From Heliocidaris tuberculata (lineage: Eukaryota > Echinodermata > Echinoidea > Camarodonta > Echinometridae), in the NCBI GenBank assembly GCA_025618425.1, contig CM046833.1, positions 40,139,022 to 40,203,021 of the forward strand: 64,000 nucleotides of DNA. The letters run 5' to 3'. Both the position numbers and the translations under genes were made by a program. Below the pieces are notes generated by a model that was not told where the DNA came from, made no database searches, and worked only from the letters and a program-made list of their open reading frames with translations. How positions within the stretch are numbered: position 1 is the first letter of the stretch; every line of letters starts with the position of its first letter. Shown here one piece after another: positions 2,899-62,489 of this stretch.

Positions 2899-3174
2899 TC
2901 GGATCTGTTGGTATTGTTTCAACTATCATTGGCAATGCTACTAGTGCAATTCCATTTCTTTTAACTGAGACATTTGGTCGATCCCATTTCTTTTAACTGA
3001 GTCATTTGGTCGATTCGTCTTTAGACGTACATCAAGCCTTTTTATAATTTATTTTTCTCCCCCTCAACAGTTAATATTCACTTGTGATTATATTTATTTC
3101 TACTGTAAAGTTACCATATATCGCTCTTTTTTGTATTCTTTTATACTTTATATGTCTCGTACATCATTGTATTT

Positions 3175-6100: not shown

Positions 6101-6180
6101 CAACTAGTCTCAAATCGACTTGCTCACTTAATATTTTCAAAAAGCAATACAAAGAAAAGCTTTTACACATTCGTACGTGA
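3175..6180 (+). pseudogene. LINE ORF2: AP endonuclease + reverse transcriptase, broken
   Basis: The endonuclease part has HFNCRSL, LTET, GVIYRPP, GDYNIDLL and SDHLPVF, so the metal and His residues remain. The reverse transcriptase has NYRPISLLP, NQFGFRSKHST, LDLSKAFD, GIPQGSILGPLLF and FADDTTL, with the catalytic Asp pair present, followed by a C-terminal CNVVWA...LQKRAVGI region. Disabling changes are TGA in place of the expected Trp codon at 3439, TAG at 4924-4926, and frameshifts near 3,850, 4,385 and 4,640. The architecture fits the CR1/L2/Jockey group; the exact clade needs a phylogeny. Confidence 0.9.
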
Positions 6181-31621: not shown

Positions 31622-33140
31622 CCGGGATATGAAGAAGGGCTTCATCAAACATTTCATCCTCATTTTGATTCAAACAGCAATTCATTAGGGGGAAAAATAT
31701 ATGAGGCTCAGTCACCGAATGAGTGGAGGAAATGCAATGTTACATTGAAAATCGTATTTTACAAACATGTCTTTTAAACTAGTGACATCATGATAAACAA
31801 GTAAATACAACATTTAGGTGACAACGGTACTCTTGAAATGTATCATTTCAACGATGTATCACACAGTTTTTAATTTCTTCCCGGTAAGAATATGCAACAT
31901 CTTTGACAATTCGGGAATCTATTGACGCTTTCATCAAAATAGCAGAATGCTAGTACATCTAAGAGATCAAATCTCTCTATTCTTTTTTTTTTTCATTGCT
32001 ATACTTTAAGAAAGAAATTCCTATCAAGAATAGGCCTATCCGATTAAATACGTAATAATTTGTGATGGAGAGAAAATTAGTATACTTACAAATAAATTAA
32101 TTAGAAGATATGAAATACCTGCCTGGCTGGAAACTGAATGAATCGTGTTGAAAATAAAAGGCTGAATATGAGTCTCACTTTAAAGAATTTATTTTAACAA
32201 ATATGCATGGAATTTCGACAGGGCAGTCAAGGCTTTTTTAATTTCTTTCTTTTAATTAGAAACAAAGCAATTATAGTAACGACTAAAAAAAATGTAAACT
32301 TGGTTAGTCAAACTTTTATATATTAAAGTGACTACTGAATTAGAAAAATAACTATTTGGCTTACTAGTCATTAAAAAAACGAAACTCAGCAGATAAGATG
32401 TAATTGAGACGATGATAATTGAAAGGTTGTAATTGGTGTCATGCTAGGTCTGAAAAAACAAAAACAAAACAAAACAAAAAAAAAACAAAACATTTGATAC
32501 TGTGGATTATGATACTCTTCGAGAAATATTAAAGCAATATGGCATAGAAGACCGTACTCTTCTGTGGTTTTCAAGTTATTTGAATAGTAGATCGCAAGCA
32601 ACATTGTGTTAATGCAGCTTTCTCTGACTTTTCATCATTGAAATCCAGGATTCCCCCGGGGGTCAGTCATTGACTCCCTCTTTTTTGTATTATATATCAA
32701 TAATTTACCCAATGGAGTCCAGTTTTGTAAACGCAGTATGTACGCAAACGACACGATGTTATACCTTTCCGGCAGTGTAATTTTGAATTCAATGCAACAA
32801 ATTAATGAAGACCTGGAATATATTAGGAGATGGCTGGTTACAAACAAATTAAGTTTAAATGTAAACAAAACGGAATATATCGTGATCGGTACAAACATGC
32901 ACGCGTCTCGGAGTGATAAATGATGAAAATATTACTTGGTGTGAATATATCAGGTTGGTGTGAATTTATCAGGAACTTGAAAGCAAACGAAATTAGGATT
33001 ACATATGCTCAACGGCATAAAGAGTTTTTAGTAAATAACGAGACATTGGAAATGGTATATCGTGCATTTGTGTCATCCAACCTTTTTTTATTGTAATTTT
33101 GTTTGGGGAATTTTTGGGAAGACACTGTTAGACACTCATA

Positions 33141-37250: not shown

Positions 37251-37305
37251 ATGGGGTCGCACATTCACCGAACCTTTTTGTTCGTCATCCTCGCCTGCCT
37301 TAAGG
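37251..37305 (+). CDS. Cassette 5 signal-peptide exon
   Basis: It encodes MGSHIHRTFLFVILACLK plus one base, with donor GTAAAC. About 130 bp of extra sequence (about 37,360-37,500) lies in the following intron. Confidence 0.8.
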
Positions 37306-40300
37306 GTAAACTAATAATTCTTTATTTTATTTTTATTTTTTTTTTCATTTTTCTTACTTTTTTTTTTAAACCATAACTGGTCTTCTTTATTAAAATAAAA
37401 TTCATGATACAAACATTTATTTCATAAATTGTTCAACATGCTGCTCCATTTTGTCAACCTCATATACACATTTTCTGTTCTTTTGTGTCTTTGTGTCTTT
37501 TCTTACTTTGATCCAGGATTGAATATGTGTAATATCTACTATAACACTCATTCACCGAATTACTTTCCTGAAGATGCACACTTCATCTGTTGATAAACAC
37601 TCCTTTACGTTTCAGAAGGCCTTCCAGTGTATTATGCAGACAATGTCAAATAATGTATCAAAAATATTGATGGCACATGTCGTTGTGATTCATTTTCTAA
37701 ATTGTTTGTGTCCCTATTTAATATGCTACAGTGGTGAGAAACGTTATTGCATACATATTTTCTGGTTATTTCAATGACTTTTGCAGGTAACCGTGGGGAC
37801 TTACAGGCATCCATTGCTAATGACGACCTTCCTGTCACTGGGGAAGATATTGAACTTGTTTGCGGATTTTTGTCTCTCCCCAGCGAATTCTACATGACAT
37901 GGAGGAGAAATGGTTCCGGGAATCTGGCTACTTTTGATTGCTACAATGGTATATCAGCTTGTGAAAAGAACACTTTGAATTCTTATTTTTCTACAGTCAA
38001 TCTGAAGACAGATTCTACACATTTTAATCTAACAATCAAAGATTTAACAATGGATGATAGTGGCATGTATCAGTGCCAAATTATCAGCATCGAAGGTGTG
38101 GAAACAGCTGCAGTAGAACTTGAAGTGTTGTCGAGAGGTAAGACCGTTTCCTGCAATTTCTTTATTACATTCGTCGCTATAGAGTAAGAATTTCATTCTG
38201 AAACATGTTCGCATTATTAAAAGAAAATAATAAAAACAAAAAAAGTGGAGACATCACGATCCCTCTTTGCGCTGATTTCAAGCGTAAATAATATAGCTAA
38301 ATTCAGCTGCAGATTGTTAACTTAATGTTCTATTTCAAGCGTACAAATTTTGGGCATGTAATTAAAATCGGTGCTCCATCATAGATTCTAAAATGTCAAA
38401 TTTGTATTTTACAGGTGTGTGTTTTTTTTTTTTCTTCTCTCTCTTTTTCTCTTTGGTTCAATATAATGCTTTCCTAATTTGATCGCCTTCTCTGTCTTTT
38501 CATATTCACCCCAACCAACTGAAATTGCCATCAGTGACCGAAGCTTTCAAGAGGAATATACAAATATTAGTTTGCAAAGATATCTTGTATTTTCACTTCG
38601 CTACTTTACACGAAAATTATAATGAAAAAACAAATCTTGAAAATATAGTACAAATGTAACAGTATTTGGGTTTGTGGACTTTTTTTTTTTTTTTTTTTTT
38701 AATTCATGACGATTTTTCAATTGGTCAGCCCCACCTGCTGGTGTAGTCATCAGCGATGATCAGTCTCAACTAAGATATGCCGAAGGCGCCTACGTTTCCA
38801 TGACAGCGGGAAAACCACAGGAAATCACATGTACAGCACGAGCACGACCCCCGGCTCTCATTGAATGGCACACGAATGTTGAAGATGTCCAGCTTCGGGA
38901 CCAGTCTAATGTGGTTGAAGGACAAACCTACACATCTCGGGGTGTAGCCACAATAACTCCTTCTACAGAAGATCATAACAAAATCATTCGTTGTCTCGTG
39001 TCCCATCCAGAACTTGGAAACTTGCTTCAAACAACCATTCGTGTTTATATTGCAGGTAATTACAATGAGTTATCTTTTTAAATGATCTTTTTTTTTTTAT
39101 TTGCCAAGTATTTCAATACATATTTCTAAGATTTTTTCCGAAATTCTTCTAGATGAACACCAATACAGCTCCTGTATTTTTTTTTTTTTTTTTTTTTTTT
39201 GTATTTTTATACCAGGAACAAATCTAAAATGCTACCATTACAATTTTAATTAGGGGTTCTGCAACAAAGGAAGAATATTTTTCGTTTTAACAATTTTCTC
39301 AATTCTTTCATTAACTCTCGAAATAAATTATCATTTCATCTGTCTATATTAGTCTTACCAAAGGCCTTACATCTCTCGGCTTCTGCAGGCATTAGCAATA
39401 AAACAGGGACCCATAGTATCGTCGTCTTTCAAAACGTTTCAGAAGTCATTACCTGCAAATGTTTGGGATATCGTCCACCGGCCCTTCTAACCTGGGAACT
39501 TGGGGGCACAGTCGTCTCTGGTGACATTACAGCTTCTGTTACCCAAAATAGCAAGGACCATAGTTTATATGATACTCTGAGTAGACTACACATGCTACCG
39601 GAAAGAAGTTATCATAACAAAATGTTGCGGTGTTTAGCACCTGCCGGGCAAAACCAACTTCAGGCAAGAGTGAAATTAGTTGTTTACGGTGAGTTCATCG
39701 ATATAATAAACTTACCTTTAAACATTCAACCAGGAAGTATATAATATATCATTAGTGAGTCCATGACAACTTGCAGAAAACACCGACATTAATGTTGGTG
39801 TAAGATCCTCTCTAAGACTCTACTTACTAATTTTGAGAAATATTATAAGTTAGATACATGTATGCGATTTTTAAGTTCACTTATCGTCGTTCGTGTCTCC
39901 GATAGTAAAAATTAAATCATGAACTTTGCATACTGTAACATTTGATGTTCAAGGACCACCGGATACTCCGCAACTACTTGGTACCAGTGACTGGCTAGAT
40001 GGGGTATCTGCCACAATCACATGCATTTCCAACTGCGGATATCCAGCACCTGTATTTCAGTGGAACCTCGGAACAACGGATCTTACCAGTGAGTCAGAAA
40101 CATATGAGGAATTTAATGAAGACAACAGAGTGTACGCTAGGAGTGTGCTTACCTTTACGCCAATGAATGACGACCACAACCAATATCTTATATGCCAAGT
40201 CTTTCAGCCTGATGGACACCCAGCGTGGTCCAGGAGTGTAAGAAAAATGATCCATATTTCATGTAAGTGGGCTTCCTTTGTTCACTATATTATATCACAC

Positions 40301-40853
40301 TAACTAGTCTGTTTTGTTGTTGTTTTTTTTTTTCTTTCAAATCCAATGTCCAGCTTGCCGTGTCGTGTTATTTTCACACACAGTGAGGCTTCAATGAACA
40401 GTTGTTACGTTGTAACCTATGTACTCACACATTCCTTCGCTTGCAGATTACTTTTTCATGAGCACCATTTTCGGTCGCAATGAACCAATTTCTGTATGCC
40501 AAAGCCCTGTTCTATAACATCGTATTCCCCCTGTCAATATCCAGATCCCCCCGTTATTGTCGACTTGTCTGTTCGTCGAGATTTAGCTGGTGATGGGAGC
40601 GTTTCTGCACTATTTACATGTCAGGCAGATGCTAGACCAGAAGCCCGTATCATCCGATGGTTATTCAAGGGAGCAAGGCTGGAGAATGATACTAAAACAG
40701 TTATTCAACATATTGATTTCCAAGAAGGGGAAACGGTTACAACAAGTACGCTGATAATTAACGAGCTGAGAGTAATTAAAGAAGGGAAATATGAATGCTT
40801 GGCCGTGACAAGGCTGGGTAACGACAGTGCTGCTATCAACTTAACTTTGTCTT
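37251..40853 (+). CDS. Cassette 5: signal peptide + five intact Ig domains, open 3' end
   Basis: Exons are 37251-37305, 37787-38137, 38729-39055, 39353-39688, 39954-40262 and 40545-40853 (1,687 nt, phase 1 at the end). Every Ig domain has its Cys pair and Trp. Its own fn3 exon has lost the acceptor, so the transcript must continue elsewhere. Joining to the microexon, transmembrane and ITAM-tail exons (48,708-50,817) gives a 718-residue frame. Joining to 56,393-62,527 gives 955 residues. Both sums are in frame. It is the cassette nearest the membrane exons and the best candidate for a complete receptor. Splicing is inferred. Confidence 0.7.
37787..38137 (+). CDS. Cassette 5 Ig1 (V-like) exon
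   Basis: 117 codons: ELVCGFLSLPSEF, MTWRRNGSG, FDCYNGISACEK, DDSGMYQCQI. It is the intact relative of cassette 1's Ig1. Confidence 0.85.
38729..39055 (+). CDS. Cassette 5 Ig2 exon
   Basis: 109 codons: PPAGVVISDDQSQLRYAEGA, ITCTARARPPALIEWHTN, IIRCLVSHPELG. Confidence 0.85.
39353..39688 (+). CDS. Cassette 5 Ig3 exon
   Basis: 112 codons: VITCKCLGYRPPALLTWELGG, MLRCLAPAGQN. The donor is GTGAGT (GTAAGT in the others). Confidence 0.85.
39954..40262 (+). CDS. Cassette 5 Ig4 exon
   Basis: 103 codons. It is nearly identical to cassette 4's Ig4 in both exon and flanking intron, unlike the neighbouring Ig5, which points to a conversion tract. Confidence 0.85.
40545..40853 (+). CDS. Cassette 5 Ig5 exon
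   Basis: 103 codons: LFTCQADARPEARIIRWLFK, INELRVIKEGKYECLAVTR. It differs from cassettes 2 and 4 at many sites. Confidence 0.85.
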
Positions 40854-44535: not shown

Positions 44536-45101
44536 GCGTTCATACGAAACTATAAGTTAGCAAAACTTTAAGTTAACGAAACCACGACTCCCTAGCAGTA
44601 ACGAGGGTTCACATGAGCCCTAAACAACGCGGGTCCGCTCGCTTTTCATAAGGACCGCTATTCACTTAACACGCGTATTGAATAGCGGTCCTTATGACTA
44701 GCGAGGTTACCCCAAACAACGAGCTGAAACTACAAGCCGAGCGACCGTCGTGGTTAACCCAGGAAGTAGATACTACCGAGTGTGTGTGTACAGTACACAT
44801 ACATATCCTGTGTTCATAACGCGCGAGGGGTGTGACCCGGAAGTTTAACATGAACAGCGAAGTCATCTCTAACCACAAGCTTTCGAAACATGGTGCGAAA
44901 TTGCGACGGAGGAACACCTGCTGCTTGTGGTTTCGACGTTAACCACAAGCTCACTCGTGGCTCTAGAACTACAGGTAAACTTAAAGTTTCGAAACCACAA
45001 GTCCGTTCATACGGTCTGAAACTACATGATAACTACCAGTTAACTTAAAGTTTTGAAACTACAAACAAAACTTAAAGTTTAGCTCCCATCGAGTGAACGT
45101 A
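44536..45101. mobile_element. TIR element with AACTTTAAGTTAAC ends
   Basis: The left end GCGTTCATACGAAAC...AAAACTTTAAGTTAAC and the right end ...TTAACTTAAAGTTTTG...GAGTGAACGT are inverted. More TTCATACG/AAACTAC pieces lie inside. It carries the MITE at 44,630-44,713. Confidence 0.55.
44630..44713. mobile_element. hAT-like MITE, 84 bp, perfect 8-bp TSD
   Basis: It is bounded by AAACAACG (44,622-44,629 and 44,714-44,721). The ends are GGGTCCGCTCGC and GCGAGGTTACCCC; the inner arms ATAAGGACCGCTATTCA / TGAATAGCGGTCCTTAT form a hairpin. Confidence 0.8.
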
Positions 45102-46754: not shown

Positions 46755-47761
46755 GAAAGGATGGTTACACAGTGTAGAAGGCCTGATGTAGCCTGTCAGG
46801 CTTTGGAATCATCAAATAAAAAATAAAAAAAATAGACTCAGTCTAGCTTATTAATTCTATTGCACTGGAAACATGGAAATGAATATTCGATCCTAACCTT
46901 TCAGCTATTTCTTGTCATATTTCGATCATGAGGACATTTTAAAAGCAATAATTATTGTTTGAAGGGACTATTCTTCTAAAATTACCTAAAAAGAATGAGA
47001 AAGCTCACAAATTATTTGTCACCGTTACCAGAACCCAACCGTCTCTTTTTATCACTGGTTCTCACTTAAAAATACAAGTAGTCTACAATGCTTCTTTAAA
47101 AAGTTAGTAGTTGAACAAAGTCTCCCAAAATAAATATTTCAAACTATTTTTATCCTAGTAGATTGATTAGGTTCTCTTCTATAAAATGACACCAAAAAGT
47201 CTGATTACATAATTATGTTTGAGTGAGCAAATGCCAAATTTGTAAAAAAAAAAAAAAAAAAAAAAAAGGTGCAAAATCAAGACTTGACAAGAATTGGTAT
47301 TTGGTGTGACTGGCATCAACAAAGCTGAGAAGCGTTAAAAGTTTATATTTGGAAAAAAAAAAACTTTCATTACTCTAAACTTTGCTGATACCATCATGTC
47401 ATAGCTGAAAACACTTTTGAAGCAGTAAACTGAGAGGATAGTTTTAAGTGCCTCGCTTTACGTCCGAAATGACTCCGAGTGTTTGACATATCGAAAATCA
47501 GATACAAAGAACATTATTCAGAATGTACTGTCATCAGTCGTTCCCCCATGATCATTAAAACTGGAAAAAATTGGAAACTATGTTTCTAAACTTTTAAAAG
47601 GGACAATTTGGATGTAGAAGTATGTCAAAATCTGCGTACAAGCAACTCACAAAAGTCCCTTTCTTGGTGATCTTGATGCTAAAAGATTGATATCTGTCCA
47701 TGCATATAAACTGACCACCACTAGCATGTCAAATCTCTATTCCATGTGTCAAGTCGTATAG

Positions 47762-48036
47762 ATCCAACTCCGTCGACCGATACCAAACGACATCTTCAAC
47801 TCTCTTCGTTGCCTGGCAAGCAAGGTTCGATGGCGGGTTGGCACAAACTTTCAGTCTGAAATACTGCCCAAACGAGACGCAAGTCCAAGATGAGGGGTGT
47901 GGTCTTGTCACCAACTTGACTGGGGCATCTTACAGGTTGACTGGACTGAAACCCATGACATGGTATCGGTTGAGTATATGGGCGGTGAACAGCGAGGGGA
48001 ATAGTAGTACACTCGAGACTATGGTATCAACAGCTC
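47762..48036 (+). pseudogene. fn3 exon of the ITAM-tail gene, 5' end damaged
   Basis: It is homologous to 56,393-56,686: TTSSTLFVAWQARFDGGLAQ, TFSLKYCPNETQVQDEGCGL, LKPMTWYRLSIWAVNSEGNS. It ends at donor GTGAGT in phase 1. At the 5' end about 11 nt are missing, so from either nearby AG (47,753 or 47,761) a phase-1 entry gives an early stop or the wrong frame. The exon works only if entered in phase 0 or 2. It is probably skipped or dead. Confidence 0.65.
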
Positions 48037-48707: not shown

Positions 48708-48728
48708 CATTACCACCAGAGAGATATG
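48708..48728 (+). CDS. 21-nt microexon, membrane-proximal linker
   Basis: AG|CATTACCACCAGAGAGATATG|GTAAGC encodes PLPPERY(G) in phase 1-1. It is homologous to the microexon at 57,724-57,744 (PSSPESY(G)). It links the last extracellular domain to the stalk or membrane exon. Confidence 0.7.
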
Positions 48729-49225: not shown

Positions 49226-49275
49226 ATGAAACAGAGTGTTTTTACAGAGGTCAGCATTGACCCGGAGGATGACTC
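49226..49275 (+). pseudogene. Remnant of the Cys-rich stalk exon
   Basis: AATGAAACAGAGTG and GAGGTCAGCATTGACCCGG-type sequence match the exon at 58,643-58,879. Both sides are replaced by C/A-runs and a G-rich stretch. No splice sites remain. Confidence 0.75.
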
Positions 49276-49447
49276 CAGGGGGAGGGGGAAAGGGGGGAAA
49301 TGGTGAAAAGAGAAAATAATTAGAGGGATATTTCCCCTTATCGCCCCTTCCCCCACTCATTATTACCACCAGTTAATAATTTCTAAAACGACAGCAATTT
49401 ATCTAAAAGTCGGTATCCATAACTGTCTTTGTCATTTTTCCCATTAG

Positions 49448-49600
49448 ACTCACCAGTTGTGACTCAGCCATCAACTCCAGGAAGAAGATTTTTTATGACG
49501 ATCGTTTTTGGAGTGGTTGCTTCAGTCGTCATACTCATTCGTATTTATGTGGGTTTGATGTACTCCTTTGGCTCGTTGTGCTTTGGAAACAAAACGAATT
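49448..49600 (+). CDS. Transmembrane exon of the ITAM-tail receptor
   Basis: 51 codons in phase 1-1: DSPVVTQPSTPGRR, then a membrane segment of about 23 residues (FFMTIVFGVVASVVILIRIYV) and GLMYSFGSLC. The Arg inside the segment (ILIRIYV) is unusual for a simple anchor; charged membrane residues are known from receptors that pair with adaptors. It is homologous to 59,569-59,718 (shared VGLMY). Confidence 0.8.
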
Positions 49601-50070: not shown

Positions 50071-50521
50071 TTTTTCTCTCACTTCCCCCGGCTTTTTCGC
50101 TCTCACTTTTTTTTAATGGCCACCTCCATCGTCCCCTCCCCCCTGCTACACGCTTGCCTCGACATTCACTCTCGAAACCCCACACCCCCCCCCCTCCACC
50201 CAGGTATAAATGGTACCCGATATGCTAGAGCGCTACATGTTGGGCCAATTTGAAGGAACAATCTTGTTTTGATTATTACAAGTACTCTAAAACACATCGC
50301 CTTCAGGGTGTAAATCAAAATTAATTAAAAAAGAACGTAAATCACATTATATTTCTTGTGAAAATATTGTCTTCGAAAATAAACATTAACGTCTCTTTAT
50401 TTTGTCAGTCAGTCTGAAATTTGTTTACGCTCTCTGAGTGTTCACTAACAATTGATTGTTTGTGAATGTAAACAATAAAATAAATTCAATCATGGTTTTC
50501 AATTTAAGATATCCCAAGAAG

Positions 50522-50817
50522 GCTATGCTGAAATATCACTGACGCAGGAGCATGATTATGAGGCTCTTAAACCAACTACATGTACTAGTTCCTACATGGA
50601 CATGAAACCAATTTCGTCTGCGCACTCTGCCATCCGTGGTTTTAATCCTTCTAGCAGTGGTAGTGATGAATATGTCAGTCCCAGATTTACAAGGAAGGAG
50701 CCTGAGCCTATGTATGCAAGTGCTAGCGGTGAGCATGTGGCAACCACATACATGGAGATAAAACCTGAAGTGCCAAACGAATGCTGTCCCCACAACTCTA
50801 AACCTTCTGGATCTTAG
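50522..50817 (+). CDS. Cytoplasmic tail exon with ITAM and YxxM motifs
   Basis: Read from GC|TAT after AAGAAG (phase 1, matching the transmembrane exon) it encodes YAEISLTQEHDYEAL, an ITAM (YxxI-x7-YxxL). It then has SYMDMKP (YxxM, the PI3K p85-binding type), DEYVSP, MYASA and TYMEIKP, and TAG at 50,815-50,817. An alternative phase-0 start at 50,509 (ISQEG...) would need an extra small exon like 60,752-60,789; the Tyr content is the same. The tail is inferred to recruit SH2 proteins after Tyr phosphorylation. Confidence 0.75.
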
Positions 50818-51174
50818 AGCAAAGTATATGCTGCTCCTTTTAAGTGGAGGCAGAATGATCATCGTGTAGACATAGCGGAAGCTGTGTATACCAACACAAA
50901 GAACTGAACAAGGTGCCAAATGAGGAACCTGCTGATCCTCAGTATATCAATACAGTTCCCAAAACAACGGATGATGAAGATGATGGGACAACCAGATACA
51001 TGGAGATGAAGCCTCTGTCATCCACCATTCCCTTCCGTTGACACGGTCATCTACCATCTATTTCAGAAAATTATGGCAAGGCTTGTCCATCTTTCACGCT
51101 TGGGGTGAACGATACCGCAGACATGTGTGAAGCCCATTATGTTAACACGGAGGCAATGACATTCCCGATGTGAG
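50818..51174 (+). pseudogene. Decayed continuation of the ITAM tail
   Basis: After the TAG the same frame runs SKVYAAPFKWRQ...EAVYTNTKN-TGA. A +1 shift gives NKVPNEEPADPQYINTVPK, then TTRYMEMKPLSS, then a stop; another frame gives ENYGKACPSF...HYVNTEAMTFPM-TGA. Repeated YMxMKP, EAxYxNT and VPNEE units show it was once coding tail. Confidence 0.65.
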
Positions 51175-51806
51175 GGAAGGATTCTCAGTGCACCAGTATT
51201 GTTCTTGAGGAAACATGCAAAAATGTCACTACCTATTTTTGAGCAAAATTGTTGTATCCTATGAATACACACACATATGCATCGTTTCACCGTCTGGTGA
51301 GTTGTCCCTAAAAATTGGTTCTTAGTTCAAGAGCTACATGCTTAGCGTTTGCTACACAAATACCAAAGCAAAATATGAATGATGAGATCATTATCGTACT
51401 ATCCTCTGGGGCTCATCCCTCTTTACCGAAAAGTTAAGTACAGTCGTTTTTATCATCTCTTTAAGTGATTATGCAATACAGTATCTGTTACACTGTACCA
51501 AAAGTCTATTGAATCATTGCAGTATATGTATATTATTTTGAATACATATGAGAAGCTAGTGCACTTTTTTAAATTTAACATTTGTCCTCACAATGTGTAC
51601 ATAAGCATAATTAGAATGTAATCGTAATATTGTAAACCTTGAAATGTAAACAGCATTTGCAAAGCACAGGTATGAACCTCTTTGTAAACTAATTACATTA
51701 TAATGCAGGATGTTTTAGATGATAATTTATCACAATATCAGCATATTACTCCCAAAACAAAAACAAACAAACAAACAAACAAAAAAACAAACATATAATA
51801 CAATAC

Positions 51807-51844
<38 letters not shown>

Positions 51845-52760
51845 CATGTATATCATGACATAGATATCATGGACTTATACAAAAATCAATCTGCAACATA
51901 AGAAATTGTAAGCACATTGGAATAATAGATTTCGTTAATATAGTGTATTTGTAAACCTGTGGAAAAAAACTATGACACGTTGAGTATGGTATAAATCAGT
52001 GTATTTTATCATTGATGAAGTTGGTGTATTATCAAGAACTTATATATGGATATATGCATTTTTGAATTTATATATTCTAAACATGATAATAAATCAATTG
52101 ATCGATTGTTATAAGTAAGATATACATTATTTTATCACATAATCATGCAAACTGCAATATCACCAGTACTCTACATTTAAAAATGTATTACCGTTTCCTG
52201 TTATATTTCTTTGTTAATGTAAATAATGCATGCATCATCATCATCCCCCCCACAAAACAAAACAAAAAGTTCTCTCTCGCTCTCTCTTTCTCTGTCTCCC
52301 GTTCTGTTTATCTGAATCTATTTCTCACATCTAATCAATATTAAGATTGAAGTGTTGTCTATGCTCCAATGAGACTGTTTAATTATGCTTGTTTCTTTCT
52401 TTCCTTTTTTTTAATGCATGTAAGTAAAACAAAAATAAATACATGTATCAATTTATTTTGAGTGAATTAGCATAAAGTAATTGATACAAGCTTCTGAAAT
52501 TGTTCCATTAGATTGACTGTAAGTTTGTCATAGAATTGTGGTAGTTGTTATTGATAAGAGGTTTTATGGAACATGCCCATACAGAAACTATCAAATCGAA
52601 ATGTTCACATATAATGTACGTTAAGCCTATTAAAATCTTTATTTCAAAATATGACACGTATAGCCCTTTAATAATGACACAATGTACTCTCTTTAAAATT
52701 TATGCAACTGAATAAAGTTTCATAATGTAACTCAATCGTACAAGAGTTCCATTCTTGTCT
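50818..52760 (+). other. 3' region of the ITAM-tail gene
   Basis: After the tail relic the DNA is AT-rich with several AATAAA signals (for example 52,434 and 52,712) and a (TA)n run at 51,810-51,841. A stretch at about 52,480-52,570 (AAGCTTCTGAAATTGTT, GTTATTGATAAGAGGTTTTATG) matches 62,000-62,095 after the second tail, so the two genes share 3' flanks. Confidence 0.55.
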
Positions 52761-53556
52761 TTAAACAAAATACTTTTCAAATCAGTCAGAAAGGCAGCCG
52801 TTCATCAGGAACAATGGCCCTTTGAAAGGTTACATTAAACACGCATAATATTTCAGTCACCCAGCACGTCGCCTGTTTTGCACAAACCAGGGGAGAAGCT
52901 ATAACTGATTTGGGGCACGCCCAAGGTGAATATTAATCATGTTCCATATTCAGCATTGAAAGAATCATTTTCAAAGTCGATGGCGTACTTCATTTTTGAA
53001 AGGAGTGGATGAATATGATCGTATCAGAGAAAAGATTTAAAAAGAAGGAAATAGAAAAAGAAAAAGAAAAAAAAAATATATAAAATGAGGAAGAGGGGAG
53101 AATTGAAGAGAGGAATGAAGAGAATGGAAGACGGAGAGAATAATTAAACATGAATGTCATCTGGCTTGAAAGCAATATGCAAACTACATGTGAACCAAAA
53201 AGTCTCAGTAAAGATGAACAGTACATGTGTAAAAACTATACATTTTATAATAGTGTGTGTTACGTGTTCCCCCCAACACCTTTGTTAACCCCAAACCCCT
53301 GTGCATTCACAATAGCCCCGTTTACCCTTGAGTAACCACCATTGCAATTAATGTCTTGTTCGAACGTATTTGTGCACAAGTATAGTAGAGTAATCATGTA
53401 ATTTTAAATAAGCTATCACTTGCCTGATGATCGCTCAAGGCGTGAAACTCCGAGTAGCAGCCATGCTCCATTAGTTTGTCTTATACCATAATATTTATTG
53501 CTTTGCGTTGACATTGAACACTTTACGCTAGGATAGACCAAACTAGATATATATAA

Positions 53557-53608
<52 letters not shown>

Positions 53609-54673
53609 CTACAAAGTTGGACATTGACTTAACAGTAAAGTACTCAAAACCGTGATGTTAATAAATACCAAAAGATTTGTAGCGTTATCAGTTTATATTT
53701 CTTTTATATGTTTCCTTTTCAGTTATATAAAACCACACTTGAGTGTTGGGGAATTTGTCTTGAATTAGTTAAACTATACATGGACTTTCTCGCCAATCAG
53801 AACAGCCATATTGTCTTTACTTGTAGTATTGCCTCTACTTGCAATATGTAGATGCAGTGTCTACTTCTACAGCATAACATGTTAATATCCACTTCTATTA
53901 TTTTATTGTTCTTCAGTACTACAGGTAATTGATATTACAATGGATATTACAATAAAAGTACTCAAACCCGTGTTTAAAAAAAACAAAAACAAAGAGGTGT
54001 AGAGTTACCAGTTTATATTTCTCTTAGCTGTTTCATTTTAAGACTTAAAATAGACACAACTAAGTTTTGGGGAATTTGTCTTGAATTGGTTAAAACTACA
54101 TGCACTTTATCGCCATTCAAAGCGGCCATTTTGTCTCTTCTTGAGGGATGACACAATCTTTCATAATACAACGATTTATATAAAATGATTTCTCAACTTC
54201 AGTTAAAATTTCATCCTGTTCTCGTCGTGTGTTTAACATGTAATTGTGCATCTGTTTGCTACGAATGATTATATTTACGATTAACAATAAAAAATACCAC
54301 CCAGGTGAGGCAATTTCCTTATCTAACAGTAGCTTTGGTCAGGTGTGTAAATCTGTAAACAAAACAATATTGATCTCATAAATCTGTAATCCCCCCCCCC
54401 CCCCCCCCTCTGTTATCGAAAATGATGGGAGGGCTAATAAGTTGCCTTATTGGGTTTACTTTTCAAATTACCCAGCATAATTGTGCCATTGCTCTAAAGT
54501 ACCCCGTGGATAGATTTCTACACACTTGTCCGACGTTGCGTTTCTTGGTGGGGGGGGGGGGGGGGGGATTGCAGCCTGCCATGCAAATCTCGATGTACAG
54601 ATTTTAGCCGATGTTGAGATCTATAATCGATGACGATGTCCATCTTATTTGCACTTTCACGCCTTCCTTTCAG
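52761..54673 (+). other. Spacer before the ITIM-tail gene
   Basis: No exon was recognised. It contains a (TA)n tract at 53,563-53,607, a direct duplication of about 190 bp (53,632-53,822 and 53,951-54,144, both with TTGGGGAATTTGTCTTGAATT), and C/G-runs at about 54,390 and 54,550. No cassette-type promoter or signal exon was found. Confidence 0.5.
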
Positions 54674-54897
54674 AATGTCGATTTTCGTAAAAGAGAATTC
54701 TACCATCTTAGCAAACAAAGTATGTTTCAAAAATGGAGAGTGCAAGAATTATGTTAACAATGCTTCGACGATCACCTGGATGACACATAGCGAATCTAGC
54801 AATTAAAAAAAGTAGACATTGAGCGACAATGGGGACTATCAATGCATCGTCAACAACATAAGATCGGATACAGCAATTCTAGATGTGCTCTTCCCAG
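54674..54897 (+). pseudogene. Degenerate Ig exon
   Basis: The first half reads VCFKNGECKNYVNNASTITW and stops at TAA 54,804. The second half reads LSDNGDYQCIVNNIRSDTAI in another frame. The middle strands are deleted. The acceptor (TTTCAG) and donor (GTTAGT) remain. Confidence 0.7.
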
Positions 54898-55217
54898 GTT
54901 AGTAAGGCCTCACATTTAGCGTATTTTCACTGTAAGTATCTCAATTTCATGATCACTAAGAATTGTTAATATAAGCCCAACAGAAAATATAATATATGGC
55001 ATAGCCTTTTTTTTATAAGTATTCTCGTAATAAATTGTCTTTTCTTTTCAGATAAGCCAATTAATGAAACAACGATACAAACACAAGAATTTCCCGGATA
55101 TTGAATCAAGTCTTTTTAGAAACCCTTTTATATTTTGTATTCCGTTAATATGCATGTACAGCATTTTGATAAACTCTTCTGTTACTGATTTTCTAATTTT
55201 GGGATGTATGTATAAAG

Positions 55218-55532
55218 GACCCCCAGAATTTCCAGAAATTGGCAACGTTGGAAGTCTAAGGGATGGTGAAGAAGCCAAAGTGATCTGCACATCCAACAGC
55301 GGATATCCAGCTCCCCTAATCCACTGGTACATGTACATGGAATCAAATAACGTCACGAAAAAATCCTCTATTTATGCAACAATAAATGCAAATGGTCGTG
55401 TGAACTCTAGAAGTATTCTACTGTTCACACTATCACGTTACCATCACGGAAAACGCCTTATCTTTCAAGTACTTCAACCGACAGCACCCTCAATGAGGTC
55501 TCAGAATGACAGCAAGGTTCTAAATGTCCACT
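55218..55532 (+). CDS. Ig4-like exon of the ITIM-tail gene
   Basis: 105 codons, phase 1-1: GPPEFPEIG, VICTSNSGYPAPLIHWYMYM, RSILLFTLSRYHHGKRLIFQ, VLQPTAPSMRS. It is homologous to cassette Ig4. The F-strand Cys is Phe (LIFQV), so the domain lacks the core disulfide. The donor GTCAGT is weak. Confidence 0.7.
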
Positions 55533-55894
55533 GTCAGTTAACCGAACCTTTATAAATTGAATAACTTCAAGAAAAGAAATTATTACCCCTACATTATTTC
55601 TTTAGGTCTATCAATTATGTCCTTTAAACAAAGATGATGATTTTTTTTTTGTTCATTTTAATTAAAAAAAAATATAAATATCAAATCATTAATGGATATC
55701 ATCATTTGGAAACAGAATATGTGATAAACGTAACGACTACTATTTTTGTTACTTTATTTTTTTCTTGTACATTTATTCTATTACAACATGGACTTCTAAA
55801 CTGTGGGGCACTGCATTTAATTAATATGTTACATGTATTTCATGTTTTCATGTAATTGATCATTCATATAAAACCCTTTGCATCTCTCTCTGAC

Positions 55895-55930
<36 letters not shown>

Positions 55931-55946
55931 TATCTTTCTAACGCAG

Positions 55947-56247
55947 ACTATCCTGTCATTGTCAACATTTCTGTTCAACGTCTTAAAGACGATAATCACT
56001 TCATCAGTGTAAAATTCACATGTACATCAGATGCCATCCCACGAACCGCTAACATCTCCTGGTAGCACAATAGTACTGCCCTCACTAACAACACTCAGCA
56101 TCTCATTCTGTCTGGTGGGATCCAAGGTGGAACCCTCTCTACAAGTAGCCTAGTCATACATGATGTTCGACCGAGCATTTCGGGGAAATATGAATGTCTG
56201 GCTAGTACAGATCTCGGTGACGCCAACGCGTTTTTTATGCTATTCCA
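55947..56247 (+). pseudogene. Ig5-like exon with in-frame TAG and wrong end phase
   Basis: YPVIVNISVQRLKDD, FTCTSDAIPRTANISW, then TAG at 56,063-56,065, then HNSTALTNNTQH...SGKYECLASTDLGDANAF. The end (TTCCA|GTGAGT) leaves phase 2 where phase 1 is needed. If skipped, the Ig4-like exon joins the fn3 exon in frame. Confidence 0.75.
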
Positions 56248-56392
56248 GTGAGTATAAAAACGAGAAAATGGCATCCAACAGTATGGCATGTCTAACATAT
56301 CATCGTATTTCTTCAATTCAAGGGACAGAAATGATTTGAAACAGTATATTCCGATTTTCAACCATTTCAAAATCTGTTCTCCACATCTACAG

Positions 56393-56686
56393 TCCTCCCA
56401 GATCCACCTTCTTGGTTCATCGTCGACCAAAACCAGACGACATCTTCAACTCTCTTCGTTGCTTGGCAAACTGGATTCGATGGCGGGTTGCCTCAAACTT
56501 TCACCCTGAAATACTGTCTCAACGACACCCAAGTCCAAGATGATGGGTGTGGACTTGTCACCAACTTAACTGGGGAATCCCACAGCTTGACCGGACTGAA
56601 ACCATTTACCTGGTACCGGTTGACTCTATGGGCGGTGAACAGCGCGGGGAACAGTAGCACTGTGGTGGCAGTGGCTTCAACAGCTC
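56393..56686 (+). CDS. Intact fn3 exon
   Basis: 98 codons, phase 1-1: LPDPPSWFIVDQNQTTSSTL, FVAWQTGFDGGLPQTFTLKY, LKPFTWYRLTLWAVNSAGNS. It has the fn3 signatures (W in strand B, WYRLTLWAVNSAG). It ends STA plus a phase-1 base at GTAAGT. It is the only complete fn3 domain in the window and the template for judging the cassette copies. Confidence 0.85.
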
Positions 56687-57120
56687 GTAAGTTTCTGCAT
56701 AGGCCTAAATTAATATAGTTGGCTAGTTCTTCTACGGTCCCTGGTGACATCTTTATTTTCTTTCGATTATAATATTTTATTCTCTCCTCACAAATGCCGT
56801 TTTCTATTTATTTCAAGCAATGTGATTATAATGGATGGACACGTAGCTCCATTTACTTAGGGCTTTTGGAAATATTGCTTTAAAGAAAAACGGAAGAAAA
56901 ACAAAACATCCCCGAGATCAAGTTATCTCACCTCACTTTACAAATCACATTCAGTCATTATTTTGACCTCAACATTGTTTCCTGAAAAAGAATCCCAATT
57001 TTCCCTACATTCCAGTAAAATGAATCCATCTTGCCATAATCTCTACAAAACAGACTGGTTCTGGAAACTAAATTATTCCACAAAAACAACTGCAGAGGAT
57101 GTGTCCGAAAATGTGACCTC

Positions 57121-57154
<34 letters not shown>

Positions 57155-57162
57155 GTCTAATT

Positions 57163-57372
57163 GGGGTAACCTCGCTCGTCATAAGGACCGCTATTCATAA
57201 AGACCACTTATTCATAAGGACCACTATCCATAACGCGTGACTAAGTGAATAGAGGTTTTGTACGACCATAGACAAATTTCCTCGTTGTTCATAAGGACAT
57301 CCATTCATAAGGACCACTATTCATAGCGCGTGTTATATGAATAGCGGTTCCTATGAACAGCGAGCGGACCCG
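57163..57372. mobile_element. hAT-like MITE, 210 bp, perfect 8-bp TSD
   Basis: It is bounded by GTCTAATT (57,155-57,162 and 57,373-57,380). The ends GGGGTAACCTCGC and GCGAGCGGACCCG are the same pair as the MITE at 44,630 in the opposite order. The interior holds extra CATAAGGACC(G/A)CTATTCAT copies. Confidence 0.85.
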
Positions 57373-57723
57373 GTCTAATTAACTATTAAACATGTTAACT
57401 ATTCATTTCTAACATTTTTAAAGCTAAATCTACTTAATTCTTTCGAAAAAGCAGAACAATATTGCAATGTCATGTCAGTTTCCTTATCCAATTCACACTT
57501 TATACTGTTTCGTTAATGTAGGTGATGAGTAAGCCTAACATATAATTAATTAGTTGACAAAAGAAAGTTGCCAGAGTTATTTATAACTTCATGTTTTTCT
57601 TTCAGTTCAAATCGAAACATTATAAACAACAAGCTTGTAAGGACACAATCAGTTTTGAAACGTCATTAAATTGGTGTTCTGTTTCTTTTTCTCTTTATGC
57701 TTCCTTGTTTGGGTGATATACAG

Positions 57724-57744
57724 CTTCATCACCAGAGAGCTATG
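57724..57744 (+). CDS. 21-nt microexon, second copy
   Basis: CAG|CTTCATCACCAGAGAGCTATG|GTAAGG encodes PSSPESY(G), phase 1-1. The size, phase and PES/PER-Y core are kept between the two receptor ends. Confidence 0.75.
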
Positions 57745-58642
57745 GTAAGGATAAAGGCTGCTATAACGAAATTCTTGTTAGTTTGTTTTGCTAGTTGGTT
57801 GGTTTAATGAGGGAATAAACGATTTCTTAAAGTCAGAGAATGGCATATACATGTATATGTACTTCAGCTTTCATTCCGCATCATTCAAATGCCATAATAG
57901 ATGTACTTAGCAGAAGTTTATGCTAAAGAGTGACCTTTTTTACCTTATGTTTATCTATTGTTGTCAGCTCTCCAATAAAATCAATAATGAAATTTCTAAC
58001 TCAAAATGAGAATATTCATTTGAAATATTTTTTGTCTCTCTCACCAGTTGATTCAGTAGATATTTACATGGCCAATGTTAACATTCAATAAGTAGACCTT
58101 CAAAGGAAAGAGTAAAAATAAAATTCTTCAAGTTAAATCAGCAATCACACTCAATTTCATACGAGTTGCTTTGAGAATAAAAGATGAACATTGATATCTG
58201 GCCCACAACTCTCTACAAAACAACAAATCTATCTCTTGGTTACTTTTTTGTTGGATCCAATATTGGACCACATTCTGAGATAATGCAAGAAAATGCTCTT
58301 AAAACATACGACACATTTCATTACTTCAATTTTATGATCTCTCATTTTTCAAACCCTCCGACGATATATTCCCTCCCTTACAATGAGGAAATAAACAATT
58401 AGTTTTCGAATGTTTTAGATTAGATTGACTTCTTAGAACAATTATATATAAGAGCAAACATAAACAATTTCTTCCATTCAACTTGCACCTTGCATGATGT
58501 CTACTACTTATAACGTGCAAAAAGTGGGTTTATTATAAATCCAATCAAAAGTATTTCAGCTGTTATTAACATGGACTTGACACTCTCTCGAATATTGTGC
58601 TCATGCATACTTACCACTTTCCTTCTGTGTTTCATCATATAG

Positions 58643-58879
58643 GTGTAACATTCATCCAGGACAAAAAGAAACCAATCTTAACATTTTCAAACAAAAACCA
58701 ATCCTTGGAAGGTATCTGCTTTATTGTCGTACAAAACACACCGGGAAAGGACGCCTGTGACTCTGTAAATGAAACAGAGTGCGTTGAACCCGGCACAGAG
58801 GTCAGCATTGACCCGGAGGATGACCCAGTTGTGGTGACCTACGGAAGGGGGCTGTGCAGTAAACCAACCAAGCTAATAG
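58643..58879 (+). CDS. Cys-containing stalk domain exon
   Basis: 79 codons, phase 1-1: VTFIQDKKKPILTFSN, EGICFIVVQNTPGKDACDSV, NETECVEPGTEVSIDPEDDP, VVVTYGRGLCSKPTK. Four Cys could form two disulfides; there is one N-glycosylation sequon (NET). I do not recognise the fold. It lies between the fn3 domain and the membrane segment. Confidence 0.75.
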
Positions 58880-59568
58880 GTGAGGCTAATATGAATACTA
58901 TTTTTCTCTTACACATATTTACATGAATGGGGGGGGGGGGGGGGGGATAGTTGAATATTAGCCCGGACATTTGCGATCCCCTATCGATTTCTAGGGCGAA
59001 ATCTTGTCCTAAAGTTGATCTTTAAAAAAGGCATTTTACAAAGTTAAAATGAATCTGTAAAAAACAACAGAAAAATAGTTGGAAAGGTTAAGAAATGAAA
59101 ACAAGAGCACTGGTTTGATAGTAAAAACATTCTGTATCATTAGTTGGTTTACTTTTATACTGCGTAAAATGCACAATGACACAGAGATTTGATATTACCA
59201 ACATGTGATTCATCCCCTTCTATGTAGAGGAGCACGTGACAAATATAGTAAGATCATGTTTGGTTATGTGTTTTTGTGGGTGGATTCTCATGCGGGTGTG
59301 TGCATATGTGCTTGGATTTACCTACATGTGTTTGCTTGGATTCATTTGTGTGTGTTGCGAGTACATGAATGCCATTTGACGACAAAAAAGTTTCACTATG
59401 CAAAGCAAATATTAATTGCAATAGGAGAGCTTTATAGTATATTTAAGAGTATATATATTTAACTTCAACATGTAGGGATGAAAACTAGATATTAAGGTTA
59501 ATTCTGACATATTGTTTTAACAAATCAGATATCCAGTAATTAGTGTCATTGTATCCTTTTCTTATCAG

Positions 59569-59718
59569 TCTCAAAAGATGAGAAGCAGCTATCTTCAGGC
59601 AAGAACCCACTGTTCCTAACAGTTGCTCTTGGAGTGATTGCGTCTGCTGGCTTTATACTGTTAATATCAGTGGGTTTGATGTACTTCCATGGAGTGTTAT
59701 GCTGTGCGAAACTAAAAA
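59569..59718 (+). CDS. Transmembrane exon of the ITIM-tail receptor
   Basis: 50 codons, phase 1-1: SKDEKQLSSGKN, then PLFLTVALGVIASAGFILLI, SVGLMYFHGVLCCAKLK. It is an uncharged 22-24-residue membrane span followed by a Cys pair (possible palmitoylation) and Lys stop-transfer residues. Confidence 0.85.
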
Positions 59719-60751
59719 GTATGCTGTAAAACAACTGGCCCCTGCCCTTCCTCGTACTTATCCAACTATTAAAAAAGTAGCCACATATCACAAAGAAAAC
59801 TTATAATTTATTTTTCCTGTTGCAAGTACCATTCAACTTATACATATATGTTTTTCGTTATTTAAGTACCACCCCACCTCCATTAGAGAATCCTTTTGTG
59901 TCTTATAACACTTCCAGAATTGCCACTATTCCTCTTTCTTACTCTACCTTTTCCCCCTCTCCTCCTTTCCTCTTTCATTCCCTTACTATGACTTTATTAT
60001 TTTCCTTGACTTCATTTTTTGCCCCCTCTCCCTCTCTCTCTCTGTACCATCTTGCTCTTTGTCCAGTTCCTGCTGCTCATAAAACATTCTCTCTAGCTTA
60101 TCATATACATGTATATTAACTTTCACTTCCTTTCATCAATAAATCTTTCTCTCCCCCTGATGTATTGATGTATAAGCAAATGATAAGGAAACTTATGTTA
60201 AAGATATGTGTATGATGTATATGTACAGATCCATACATAGAAAGGGAAAAATAAGATGATTACGTTGAACTTGTCAAACATTAATTTTTAGAATGGCCAT
60301 ATGATGAAGGAAAAATTGACTGTAATTCATACATGTAGATATACATTTTTTTATTTTTTTTTTTTTTTTTTTTTTGGGGGGGGGTATTTACATGAAAATA
60401 GAAATAGGTAAATAAATAGTCTTTTGTTTCAGACTTCAATTGTTTTTGTCATTTTCTTCTACCTTTTTATGTTATTGTATTACAATGGTAATTATTAACT
60501 AGTAGGTTTAAACTTTCCGAATATCAGTTGTCTCATGTTGCTGATTTTTAATGACAAATTAGTTCATGGATCTTCTGTGAAAAAAAAAATATATATATTA
60601 TCATAAAATGTTATAAAAAATAGTCAACATGTTTTTTGGACAACAGAATCCGAAATAGGAAAGACTTTACCATTATCTGTCTTTTTATTTGAAACTTATT
60701 CAAATTATATTCCTATCTCTTTGTATTTCATCTTGTTCTTTGCTGTCAAAG

Positions 60752-60789
60752 TGGGGAAGGGAAGAAATGCGGAACAAGAAGGCCAAACA
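60752..60789 (+). CDS. 38-nt juxtamembrane exon
   Basis: AAG|TGGGGAAGG...CCAAACA|GTAAGT encodes MGKGRNAEQEGQT, entering in phase 1 and leaving in phase 0, which fits the phase-0 start of the tail exon. Confidence 0.6.
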
Positions 60790-61482
60790 GTAAGTTCATT
60801 GTCCATTCATTGTTCATTTATCATCACTTTCATATCCTCAACAATAAACATTCTAAATTCCATCACTTTTTCTAGGTATAAATGTATTAGGTAAAGTAAT
60901 TTATAGTCACATCAAGAAGCGAGATTCATGTATCTGCTAATCACTTTTGATATGTCATACATGAATAGTTATCAGAAAATTGTTGAGTGTCACTGGCTAC
61001 ACTATGCCAATGGCATTGTAAGGCACTGGCATAGGCTCATGTTAACAGCCCAATTATTAAGTGGTGCTACATGTATCTTTTTCAGTGAACTCTGTATAAG
61101 TTTTGTACATGTACATGTATACTTTGAAGTTCATTCCTATTTTATATGCATGTAAATCACCATATTTATGCATTTTCTCACAAGATTTCCACTTTCTAAA
61201 TGGCAAAGTTGATCATTGCACTTTTTCCCCGCTCAACATCAAGCTTTTCTCTTGAAGCACATTCTGAATCAAAAGTAGTCTTCTACTTTTTGCCCAACAA
61301 TGTATTTATGATATCCACGTTTTAATTGGTTTATTCAACTCGATGTTAAAGTTGTAAAACCTATTTTGAAGCTATAGTTAAACATGTTTTCACATAAAAT
61401 ATATACATGCATTAATCAAAGCTGACATCCCGCTCTCTATTTGGACTTTATGCATGCGTCATTTCTTTTGCTACAAACATAG

Positions 61483-61885
61483 GTGGATGATGATGGTTTG
61501 GTCTACACCTCTGTCACACACGACCGCGACCATCCCCCTAATGCCCCACCCATACAGACAGAAGAAGCAACCGTCTATGCCTCCCTCAACTCTGAGGCCA
61601 TGAAACACCGCAGGGGAGAGCTGAAATACTCCGACACAAAGGCAACAACACCAGACGGACAACCTATGTACGGGAACTACTTGGTCAAGAAGAGAAAACA
61701 AGAACAGGTCAGAATGCCGCCGCCCGTACAGACAGATGACGCCTCCGACAATGCTACCGCCATGGGAAGCCAAAAGGGAGACAGGAAATTTGGTGATAAA
61801 GGTCCTGTTACACCGGACGGACAACCCATGTATGATAACTACATGGTGAAGATGCGAAAAGAAGAGAAGGCAAAGCAGATTGCAG
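61483..61885 (+). CDS. Cytoplasmic tail exon with ITIM and ITSM-like motifs
   Basis: It starts in phase 0 with VDDDGLVYTSVTHDRD: LVYTSV fits the ITIM pattern (I/V/L/S)xYxx(I/V/L). Tyr 24 residues on lies in TVYASL, close to the ITSM pattern TxYxx(V/I). Then come LKYSDT and two copies of TPDGQPMY(G/D)NY(L/M)VK, each with a YxN site of the Grb2-binding type. The exon ends at G|GTACAC. If that donor is not used, the frame adds TPDVFQMYGI and stops at 61,918-61,920. The tail is inferred to bind SH2 phosphatases and adaptors. Confidence 0.8.
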
Positions 61886-62489
61886 GTACACCAGATGTTT
61901 TTCAAATGTATGGCATTTAAGCACTTACAAGTACATCCCCCCCCCCTCCTTTTCACACGCAAAAAAAAAAAAATGATAGCAGTAACTAGTTACAATAGTT
62001 GATATAAGCTACTGAAATCGTTGCATATGATTGGCTGCAAAAAAAAAAAAAAAGTTATAAAATTGTGGCAGCTGTTATTGATAATAGGTTTTATGACAAA
62101 GGGTCTTGGATTTTGTCTTCATCTACAAGAATGTTAACAGATACTTTCTAATTGGAGTTGAGAATAACAAGATGCAAACACATACAGTCTAAATTTGAAG
62201 AAAACTTGCATTTTTCCCAATATAAATGTATTCAAATCACATATCACACTGTGCATATTTATGACTTTTAAAGCTTACAAGAAGATGAAAGGTAATACAA
62301 TTTAGAAAGGGAGCATCATATCTGTTCATATACTGAATCTATTTATGTACATGTAATACTGACTACCTTCTAAAAGCAGTATTCATGAGGATGTTTCAAT
62401 AGTACTGAGATATATAAAATAAAGCTGCATGTGTACAGACTTGTGAGTGGAATATACAGAATATCTGTAAAATATCTTTTGAATCACAG

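What the first reader, a model, noticed from the sequence alone, without database searches (positions are those of the whole stretch)
50522..61885. Adjacent paralogous receptors with opposite-type tails: ITAM versus ITIM/ITSM
The tail at 50,522 has YAEISLTQEHDYEAL, a consensus ITAM spacing (YxxI-x7-YxxL), plus YMDM and YMEI. The tail at 61,483 has LVYTSV (ITIM) and TVYASL (ITSM-like) 24 residues apart. The exons just upstream (fn3, 21-nt microexon, stalk, transmembrane) are clear paralogs. Paired activating and inhibitory receptors with related ectodomains are well known from vertebrate immune clusters (KIR, SIRP, PILR, Siglec). A pair in an invertebrate-like IgSF array would be notable. The motifs are seen directly; the signalling roles are inferred.
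Basis: partly seen in the sequence, partly recalled or inferred. Interest (0 to 1): 0.9.

Follow-up and report, generated by a model that had tools for sequence, protein, structure and literature searches.

The report
Sea urchin paired activating/inhibitory receptors
A sea urchin chromosome carries repeated neighbouring receptor genes with closely related outer parts but opposite-looking signalling tails, like the on/off receptor pairs of vertebrate immune cells, although the two copies in this window look partly damaged.

Summary
The window is from a sea urchin. The motifs are there: ITAM at 50524-50568, ITIM and ITSM-like motif at 61498-61587. The window copies look damaged: A lacks its stalk and juxtamembrane exons, has a deletion in fn3 and a premature tail stop; B has a dead V exon and a stop in Ig5, but its fn3-to-tail exons are intact. 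The start at 50,522 is not the family's conserved acceptor (50,509).

At family level the idea holds up. The ITAM tail exon has 25 full-length matches, all on one contig (39.9-45.1 Mb); 18 of 20 read keep a strict ITAM. In 4 of 4 loci read far enough, an ITIM-tailed unit follows about 11 kb on; two 2-kb looks elsewhere found none. At one locus two units share about 95% DNA from Ig5 past TM but end in opposite tails. Lytechinus variegatus has both tail types on receptors whose TM exons are 98% identical: tails sort by type, outer parts by species. Against: the one Lytechinus A-type tail lacks the second ITAM tyrosine. Expression and signalling are untested.

The parts
37251..37305 (+). signal-peptide exon of ectodomain unit U4 (MGSHIHRTFLFVILACLKG)
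   Evidence: read; same exon in U0-U3
37787..40853 (+). U4 ectodomain exons: V 37787-38137, Ig2 38729-39055, Ig3 39353-39688, Ig4 39954-40262, Ig5 40545-40853, all open and phase 1
   Evidence: Pfam V-set, C2-set_2, I-set
47762..48036 (+). unit A fn3 exon, 10-nt deletion near its start; an in-phase cryptic acceptor lies at 47725
48708..48728 (+). unit A 21-nt microexon
49244..49288 (+). short partial copy of the stalk exon in unit A
49448..49600 (+). unit A TM exon; Arg inside the TM where the tandem copy has Leu
50509..50817 (+). unit A tail exon, conserved acceptor at 50509, ITAM 50524-50568, YMDM 50593, YVSP 50671, YMEI 50749, stop TAG 50815
50818..51190 (+). relics of the longer A tail beyond the stop (VYTNT, YINT, YMEM, YVNT in broken frames)
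   Evidence: intact in paralogs
54600..54920 (+). unit B V exon, no open frame across it
55218..55531 (+). unit B Ig4 exon (donor GTCAGT)
55947..56247 (+). unit B Ig5 exon with TAG at 56063 and out-of-phase donor
56393..56686 (+). unit B fn3 exon
57724..57744 (+). unit B 21-nt microexon
58643..58879 (+). unit B stalk exon, four cysteines invariant in 8 copies
59569..59718 (+). unit B TM exon
60752..60789 (+). unit B 38-nt juxtamembrane exon, phase 1 to 0
61483..61920 (+). unit B tail exon: ITIM 61498-61515, ITSM-like 61570-61587, YGN/YDN sites 61669 and 61831

Best explanation
The window is a partly decayed stretch of a sea urchin cluster of single-pass receptors built as signal peptide, V-type Ig, four more Ig, fn3, microexon, cysteine-bearing stalk, TM and tail. 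Two tail types exist. Type A has an ITAM followed by YxxM and YxN sites and should recruit a tandem-SH2 kinase, PI3-kinase and Grb2 (activating). Type B has an ITIM, an ITSM-like motif and YxN sites and should recruit an SH2 phosphatase (inhibitory). Units with the two tails lie side by side, and recombination (in one case in the intron between TM and tail) puts similar outer parts onto opposite tails, as in vertebrate paired receptors. Shown: anatomy, order, shared outer parts, conservation. Inferred: phosphorylation, partners, sign of the signal, immune role. Window unit A is probably dead; unit B is broken upstream of fn3.
For: 25 full-length A-tail matches, 24 without a stop, on one contig; strict ITAM in 18 of 20; motif-Tyr conservation; A unit then B unit in 4 of 4 loci, tails 10.97-11.47 kb apart; R1 A2 and B 95% identical DNA from upstream of Ig5 past TM, then A2 switches to 96.6% identity with the A1 3' end, both open with matching phases; B-like TM joined to tail A in 7 of 15 loci with a visible TM (sorted by eye); L. 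variegatus P0003 (tail A) and P0017 (tail B) with TM 50/51 and fn3 84/97 identical but tails 27/135; tree grouping outer parts by species; tail B 73.6-76.4% identical between species.
Against: Second ITAM Tyr absent in the one Lytechinus A tail, and tail A (35%) is less conserved than its outer part (54%); whole A tail dN/dS 0.83; ITIM and ITSM-like motifs not improbable by composition; no B tail in two narrow looks; B count in the genome never obtained; no intact full-length gene from signal peptide to tail assembled from one locus without skipping exons; nearest named proteins outside urchins are nephrin/turtle-like; the four A-B loci share ancestry by duplication.
Confidence: 0.68

Rival explanations
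1. A family of cell-adhesion receptors with general SH2-docking tails (PI3K, Grb2), not an immune on/off pair; ITAM and ITIM matches are a minor or accidental part.
For: Database names are syg-2-like, nephrin-like, turtle-like and kirre-like; tail A has three YxxM and three YxN sites; the Lytechinus A tail has no ITAM; tail B also has YxN sites.
Against: Rapid tandem expansion on one contig, outer parts homogenised across opposite tails in two genera, ITIM/ITSM-like pair kept in Lytechinus. Names come from automatic annotation.
Confidence: 0.2
2. One transcription unit chooses its sign by splicing: ectodomain units splice either to the ITAM cassette or to the ITIM cassette downstream.
For: Open 954-aa path from U4 into B fn3-to-tail; B V exon not open in 4 of 4 copies and no near signal exon found while B TM+tail stay open with dN/dS 0.28-0.86 in six pairs; ectodomain exons are phase 1; Botryllus FcoR loci are reported to swap motifs by splicing (PMC12065747, passages).
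Against: No RNA data; 15.5 kb would have to be skipped in the window; B signal exon may simply lie outside what I searched.
Confidence: 0.2
3. The window pair works, with both units functional as they stand.
For: Motifs and most membrane-proximal exons present; open path into A through two cryptic acceptors.
Against: Lost stalk and juxtamembrane exons, fn3 deletion, Arg in TM, tail stop in A; V and Ig5 lesions in B.
Confidence: 0.06
4. Assembly artefact: retained haplotypes and a chimeric join create the apparent repetition and tail swap.
For: The block 32842-62756 recurs 46 kb on at 92-98% identity; many equal-score pairs of fn3 matches elsewhere; two A tails 1.4 Mb apart differ by one residue (L018, L019).
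Against: Both tail types on near-identical outer parts also in L. variegatus, another assembly; B-like TM with tail A in 7 loci; window/tandem copy and R1/R2 differ by dS 0.085-0.193 in TM+tail of B (four comparisons).
Confidence: 0.05

Closest known systems
Vertebrate paired receptors (KIR, SIRP, PILR, Siglec, CEACAM, CD300; PMC3533184, PMC5112662, PMC2832619 seen as search listings only)
   Same: similar ectodomains with opposite tails, clustered genes, exchange between partners
   Different: no vertebrate immune receptor among the named hits; activating member carries its own ITAM plus YxxM and YxN sites rather than relying on an adaptor (the adaptor mode is recalled knowledge); ectodomain V-Ig-Ig-Ig-Ig-fn3
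Botryllus schlosseri FcoR family (PMC12065747, passages)
   Same: invertebrate multigene IgSF family, 53 loci reported, with ITIM or hemITAM tails
   Different: FcoR described as V, sushi, two C2, TM; here no sushi match in the scanned exons and proteins, full ITAM, and fn3 plus stalk
Hydractinia allorecognition (Alr) genes (as cited in PMC12065747)
   Same: ITAM and ITIM motifs on clustered IgSF-type receptors
   Different: not compared by sequence here
Oyster CgIgIT2 (PMC11999971, passages) and amphioxus BbLcLRR (PMC8211107, abstract and passages)
   Same: invertebrate receptors with an ITAM (five Ig) or with working ITIM-type tyrosines
   Different: no partner with the opposite tail in the passages I saw
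L. variegatus P0003 (syg-2-like) and P0017 (turtle homolog B-like isoform X2)
   Same: apparent homologs of the A-tailed and B-tailed receptors, on contigs of the same length
   Different: A tail lacks the second ITAM Tyr; annotated as adhesion-like proteins

Membership tests
Paired activating/inhibitory receptors (a kind, not a sequence family) | nearly the same ectodomain in both members | tested here: met
   R1 A2 and B fn3+stalk+TM 210/222 identical; L. variegatus pair 192/230. Window A and B are less alike: fn3 76%
Paired activating/inhibitory receptors (a kind, not a sequence family) | opposite signalling tails | tested here: inconclusive
   motifs present and conserved here, ITAM not in the Lytechinus A tail; signalling not tested
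Paired activating/inhibitory receptors (a kind, not a sequence family) | close linkage in a cluster | tested here: met
   A then B in 4 of 4 loci read far enough; 2 narrow looks negative
Paired activating/inhibitory receptors (a kind, not a sequence family) | exchange or conversion between partners | tested here: met
   A2 switch point 37724-37767 of R1; outer parts group by species
Paired activating/inhibitory receptors (a kind, not a sequence family) | expression on immune cells and shared ligands | not testable with these tools
   no RNA or binding data
KIR/SIRP/PILR/Siglec families proper | sequence homology to the vertebrate family | tested here: not met
   15 hits, none named as a vertebrate immune receptor; one hit unnamed
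Botryllus FcoR | V, sushi, two C2 Ig, TM | tested here: not met
   V, C2-set, I-set and fn3 matches, no sushi, in exons and in P0003, P0017
ITAM | YxxL/I x6-12 YxxL/I (consensus recalled) | tested here: met
   18 of 20 tails of this species; not met in L. variegatus P0003
ITIM | (S/I/V/L)xYxx(I/V/L) (consensus recalled) | tested here: met
   LVYTSV in 4 of 4 B copies, LVYISV in P0017
ITSM | TxYxx(V/I) (consensus recalled) | tested here: not met
   TVYASL/TIYASL ends in L: ITSM-like only

The most novel reading that the evidence does not exclude
The activating or inhibitory sign is chosen by splicing: arrays of signal-peptide/Ig ectodomain units without a TM of their own (U0-U4 in the window) feed alternative 3' cassettes, an ITAM one and, about 11 kb on, an ITIM one, so that one ectodomain can be given either sign, with recombination reshuffling ectodomains and tails over generations. 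In the window an open 954-aa path runs from U4 into the ITIM cassette.
Probability: 0.2. Interest if true: 0.88.

Novelty: new variant of a known kind. Interest (0 to 1): 0.72.

Why it matters
It would place the on/off receptor-pair design, with exchange between neighbours, in echinoderms, beside reports from tunicates and cnidarians, in animals whose immune cells are easy to obtain. Because outer parts sort by species and tails by type, it offers a test of whether paired receptors keep re-forming outside vertebrates.

Tried and rejected
Rejected: (a) 50,522 as the true tail start. (b) A start of B inside its Ig4 exon: a Met with an open frame up to Ig4 exists in W and D but is not kept in R1 and R2. 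(c) Tails for U0-U3: no match to either TM or tail in the window outside A and B. (d) The fold of the stalk: mean pLDDT 48 with 8 sequences, not used.

Led nowhere: the genome-wide search for tail B and any search for Syk- or SHP-like partners; of the genome searches only searches were answered. Protein search 20 missed P0017, which lies outside its length range; one search found it. Ten literature searches (several lists were capped) listed no paper on ITAM/ITIM-paired IgSF receptors of sea urchins; most subscription papers are not held, so this is weak. PMC9505182 (passages) speaks of ITAM/ITIM for C-type lectins only.

Rows dropped or not read: A-tail statistics use the 20 loci returned; 5 other full-length matches (one with two stops), one split and one partial match were not read. 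The 20 include the window itself and its tandem copy (18 distinct proteins). Two Tyr columns outside SH2-type motifs were left out of the permutation test; with all 10 consensus-Tyr columns variability is 0.055 against 0.133. The 176 pairs are those with dS over 0.03; codons with stops or gaps are left out. My working note gave the juxtamembrane exon as 68 nt; it is 71 nt, and joined it one codon short, in frame. One search held one junk row, remade.
Full report
What it is. The window lies on contig C2 (40139022-40203021) of an 897-Mb assembly.

Window anatomy. Five tandem ectodomain units have signal-peptide exons at 629, 11822, 20217, 26922 and 37251. They carry V and further Ig exons and end in an fn3 match of half length; no TM or tail match lies near U0-U3. 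The Ig exons of U1, U3 and U4 are open; U0 and U2 are broken or incomplete, and the half fn3 of U1 and U3 has an in-frame stop. Pfam finds V-set, C2-set_2, I-set and fn3. Then come unit A (fn3, microexon, TM, tail) and unit B (V relic, Ig4, Ig5, fn3, microexon, stalk, TM, small exon, tail).

Observation check. The motifs are at the stated places. The ITAM spacing is unlikely by composition (0.39% of 20,000 shuffles); the ITIM and ITSM-like motifs are not (13% and 7%). In 6 of 6 paralogous stretches compared with the window, a 71-nt juxtamembrane exon lies between TM and tail A, turning phase 1 into phase 0, and leads to a tail acceptor at the place of window 50,509 that is seen in 20 of 20 tail loci. 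The window copy lacks this exon. Window A also lacks its stalk exon, has a 10-nt deletion in fn3, Arg in the TM where the tandem copy has Leu, and a TAG that cuts the tail (shared with the tandem copy). Window B has TAG in Ig5, an out-of-phase Ig5 donor, a changed Ig4 donor and no open frame across V. On the other side, an open 954-aa path leads from U4's ectodomain into B's fn3-to-tail exons, skipping the damaged ones, and an 822-aa path into A through two cryptic acceptors. I judge A probably dead and B usable at most through upstream exons.

The family. Tail A has 25 full-length matches, 24 without a stop, plus one split and one partial match, all on C2 between 39.70 and 45.11 Mb; one further match at E 9 is taken as chance (the tool says counts are lower bounds, while retained haplotypes would make them too high). 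Of 20 read, 18 have the strict ITAM, one has YAEV, one has Cys for the second Tyr. Seventeen of 20 tails are 141-219 aa; the R1 A2 tail has three YxxM and three YxN sites. Over 161 well-filled columns the nine motif-Tyr columns vary by 0.011 against 0.129 overall (P 0.0015, 100,000 draws), while mean dN over mean dS of the tail is 0.83 (176 pairs): weak constraint on the tail, strong on the tyrosines. The rows are related, so the P value is a guide only.

Pairs. About 11 kb or more downstream of tail A was read in four loci: window (W), tandem copy 46 kb on (D), R1 (C2:42130001-42180000) and R2 (C2:45090001-45130000). In 4 of 4 a B unit follows on the same strand, tail to tail 10.97, 11.47, 11.27 and 11.10 kb. 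These loci are related by duplication. Two 2-kb looks at the expected distance behind two other A tails found no B tail. In R1, unit A2 (tail A) and unit B (tail B) align in three blocks of 95.1-95.5% DNA identity from upstream of Ig5 to past TM; between 37724 and 37767 A2 switches to 96.6% identity with unit A1, bringing juxtamembrane exon and tail A. The joined exons of A2 (Ig5 to tail) and B (Ig4 to tail) are open with matching phases; neither was found with its own V or signal exon. Their fn3+stalk+TM are 210/222 identical. Of 20 A-tail loci 15 show a TM: 7 B-like, 8 A-like by eye, so R1 is not the only such join.

Second genus. L. variegatus P0003 (936 aa, V to tail A) and P0017 (438 aa, part of Ig5 to tail B) are listed with contigs of the same length, 43,542,320, hence probably the same one. 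Their TM exons are 50/51 identical, fn3 84/97, stalk 58/82, tails 27/135. In a tree of fn3+stalk+TM (11 rows) they group together (98/95), the three Lytechinus rows stand apart from this species (100/99), and R1_A2, R1_B and R2_B form one group (100/100). So outer parts sort by species and locus, tails by type. Tail B is 73.6-76.4% identical between the species, against 56.6% for the outer part of R1 B; tail A is 35% against 54%, keeping the first YxEL, YMD(L/M)KP, YMDMKP and YxNT but not the second ITAM Tyr. The Lytechinus proteins are database gene models; I saw no RNA evidence.

How it most likely works (inferred). After ligand binding a Src-type kinase would phosphorylate tail A, with a Syk-type tandem-SH2 kinase on the ITAM, PI3K on YxxM and Grb2 on YxN; tail B would draw an SH2 phosphatase through its two spaced motifs and damp the response. 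These SH2 preferences are recalled knowledge. Partners were not searched for, because the genome search stayed busy. PMC8211107 uses an S. purpuratus Lck relative in a tree (passages).

Not settled. How B starts: V is not open in 4 of 4 copies and no signal exon was found near, yet B TM+tail have dN/dS 0.28-0.86 in six pairs, the outer exons 0.47-0.91. Splicing from upstream ectodomain units would explain this and is my boldest reading. Gene number: W and D are 92-98% alike and equal-score pairs elsewhere suggest retained haplotypes.

Prior work. ITIM and hemITAM tails are reported for 53 Botryllus FcoR loci, with some swapping motifs by splicing, and ITAM/ITIM motifs for Hydractinia allorecognition genes (PMC12065747, passages); an ITAM in oyster CgIgIT2 (PMC11999971, passages); a working ITIM-type LRR receptor in amphioxus (PMC8211107, abstract and passages). 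My ten searches listed nothing on sea urchin pairs. Hence a new variant of a known kind.

Noticed in passing
window 629-41318: Five tandem signal-peptide/V/Ig units, each ending in an fn3 match of about half length at a similar place and without TM or tail: secreted proteins, alternative ectodomains or duplication remnants.
   Followed up: partly
window 32842-62756 and C2:40220822-40248094 (L032-L035): The whole end of the window recurs 46 kb downstream at 92-98% identity, but without the U4-type Ig3-Ig5 exons: tandem duplication or retained haplotype.
   Followed up: partly
window 3109-6180 and 32642-32923: Reading frames that look like a LINE-type reverse transcriptase element inside U0 and a fragment between U3 and U4 (recognised by eye, not searched).
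   Followed up: no
window 58643-58879: The stalk exon is a conserved four-cysteine domain with no Pfam match and a low-confidence beta-rich model.
   Followed up: partly
window 61654-61875: Tail B holds a duplicated block (TPDGQPMYGNYLVK.RK) kept in Lytechinus P0017, with YGN sites of unknown role.
   Followed up: no
window 44640-44700 and 57160-57380: Repeated 'ataaggaccgctattcat'-like sequence in both places, possibly a small mobile element (seen by eye).
   Followed up: no
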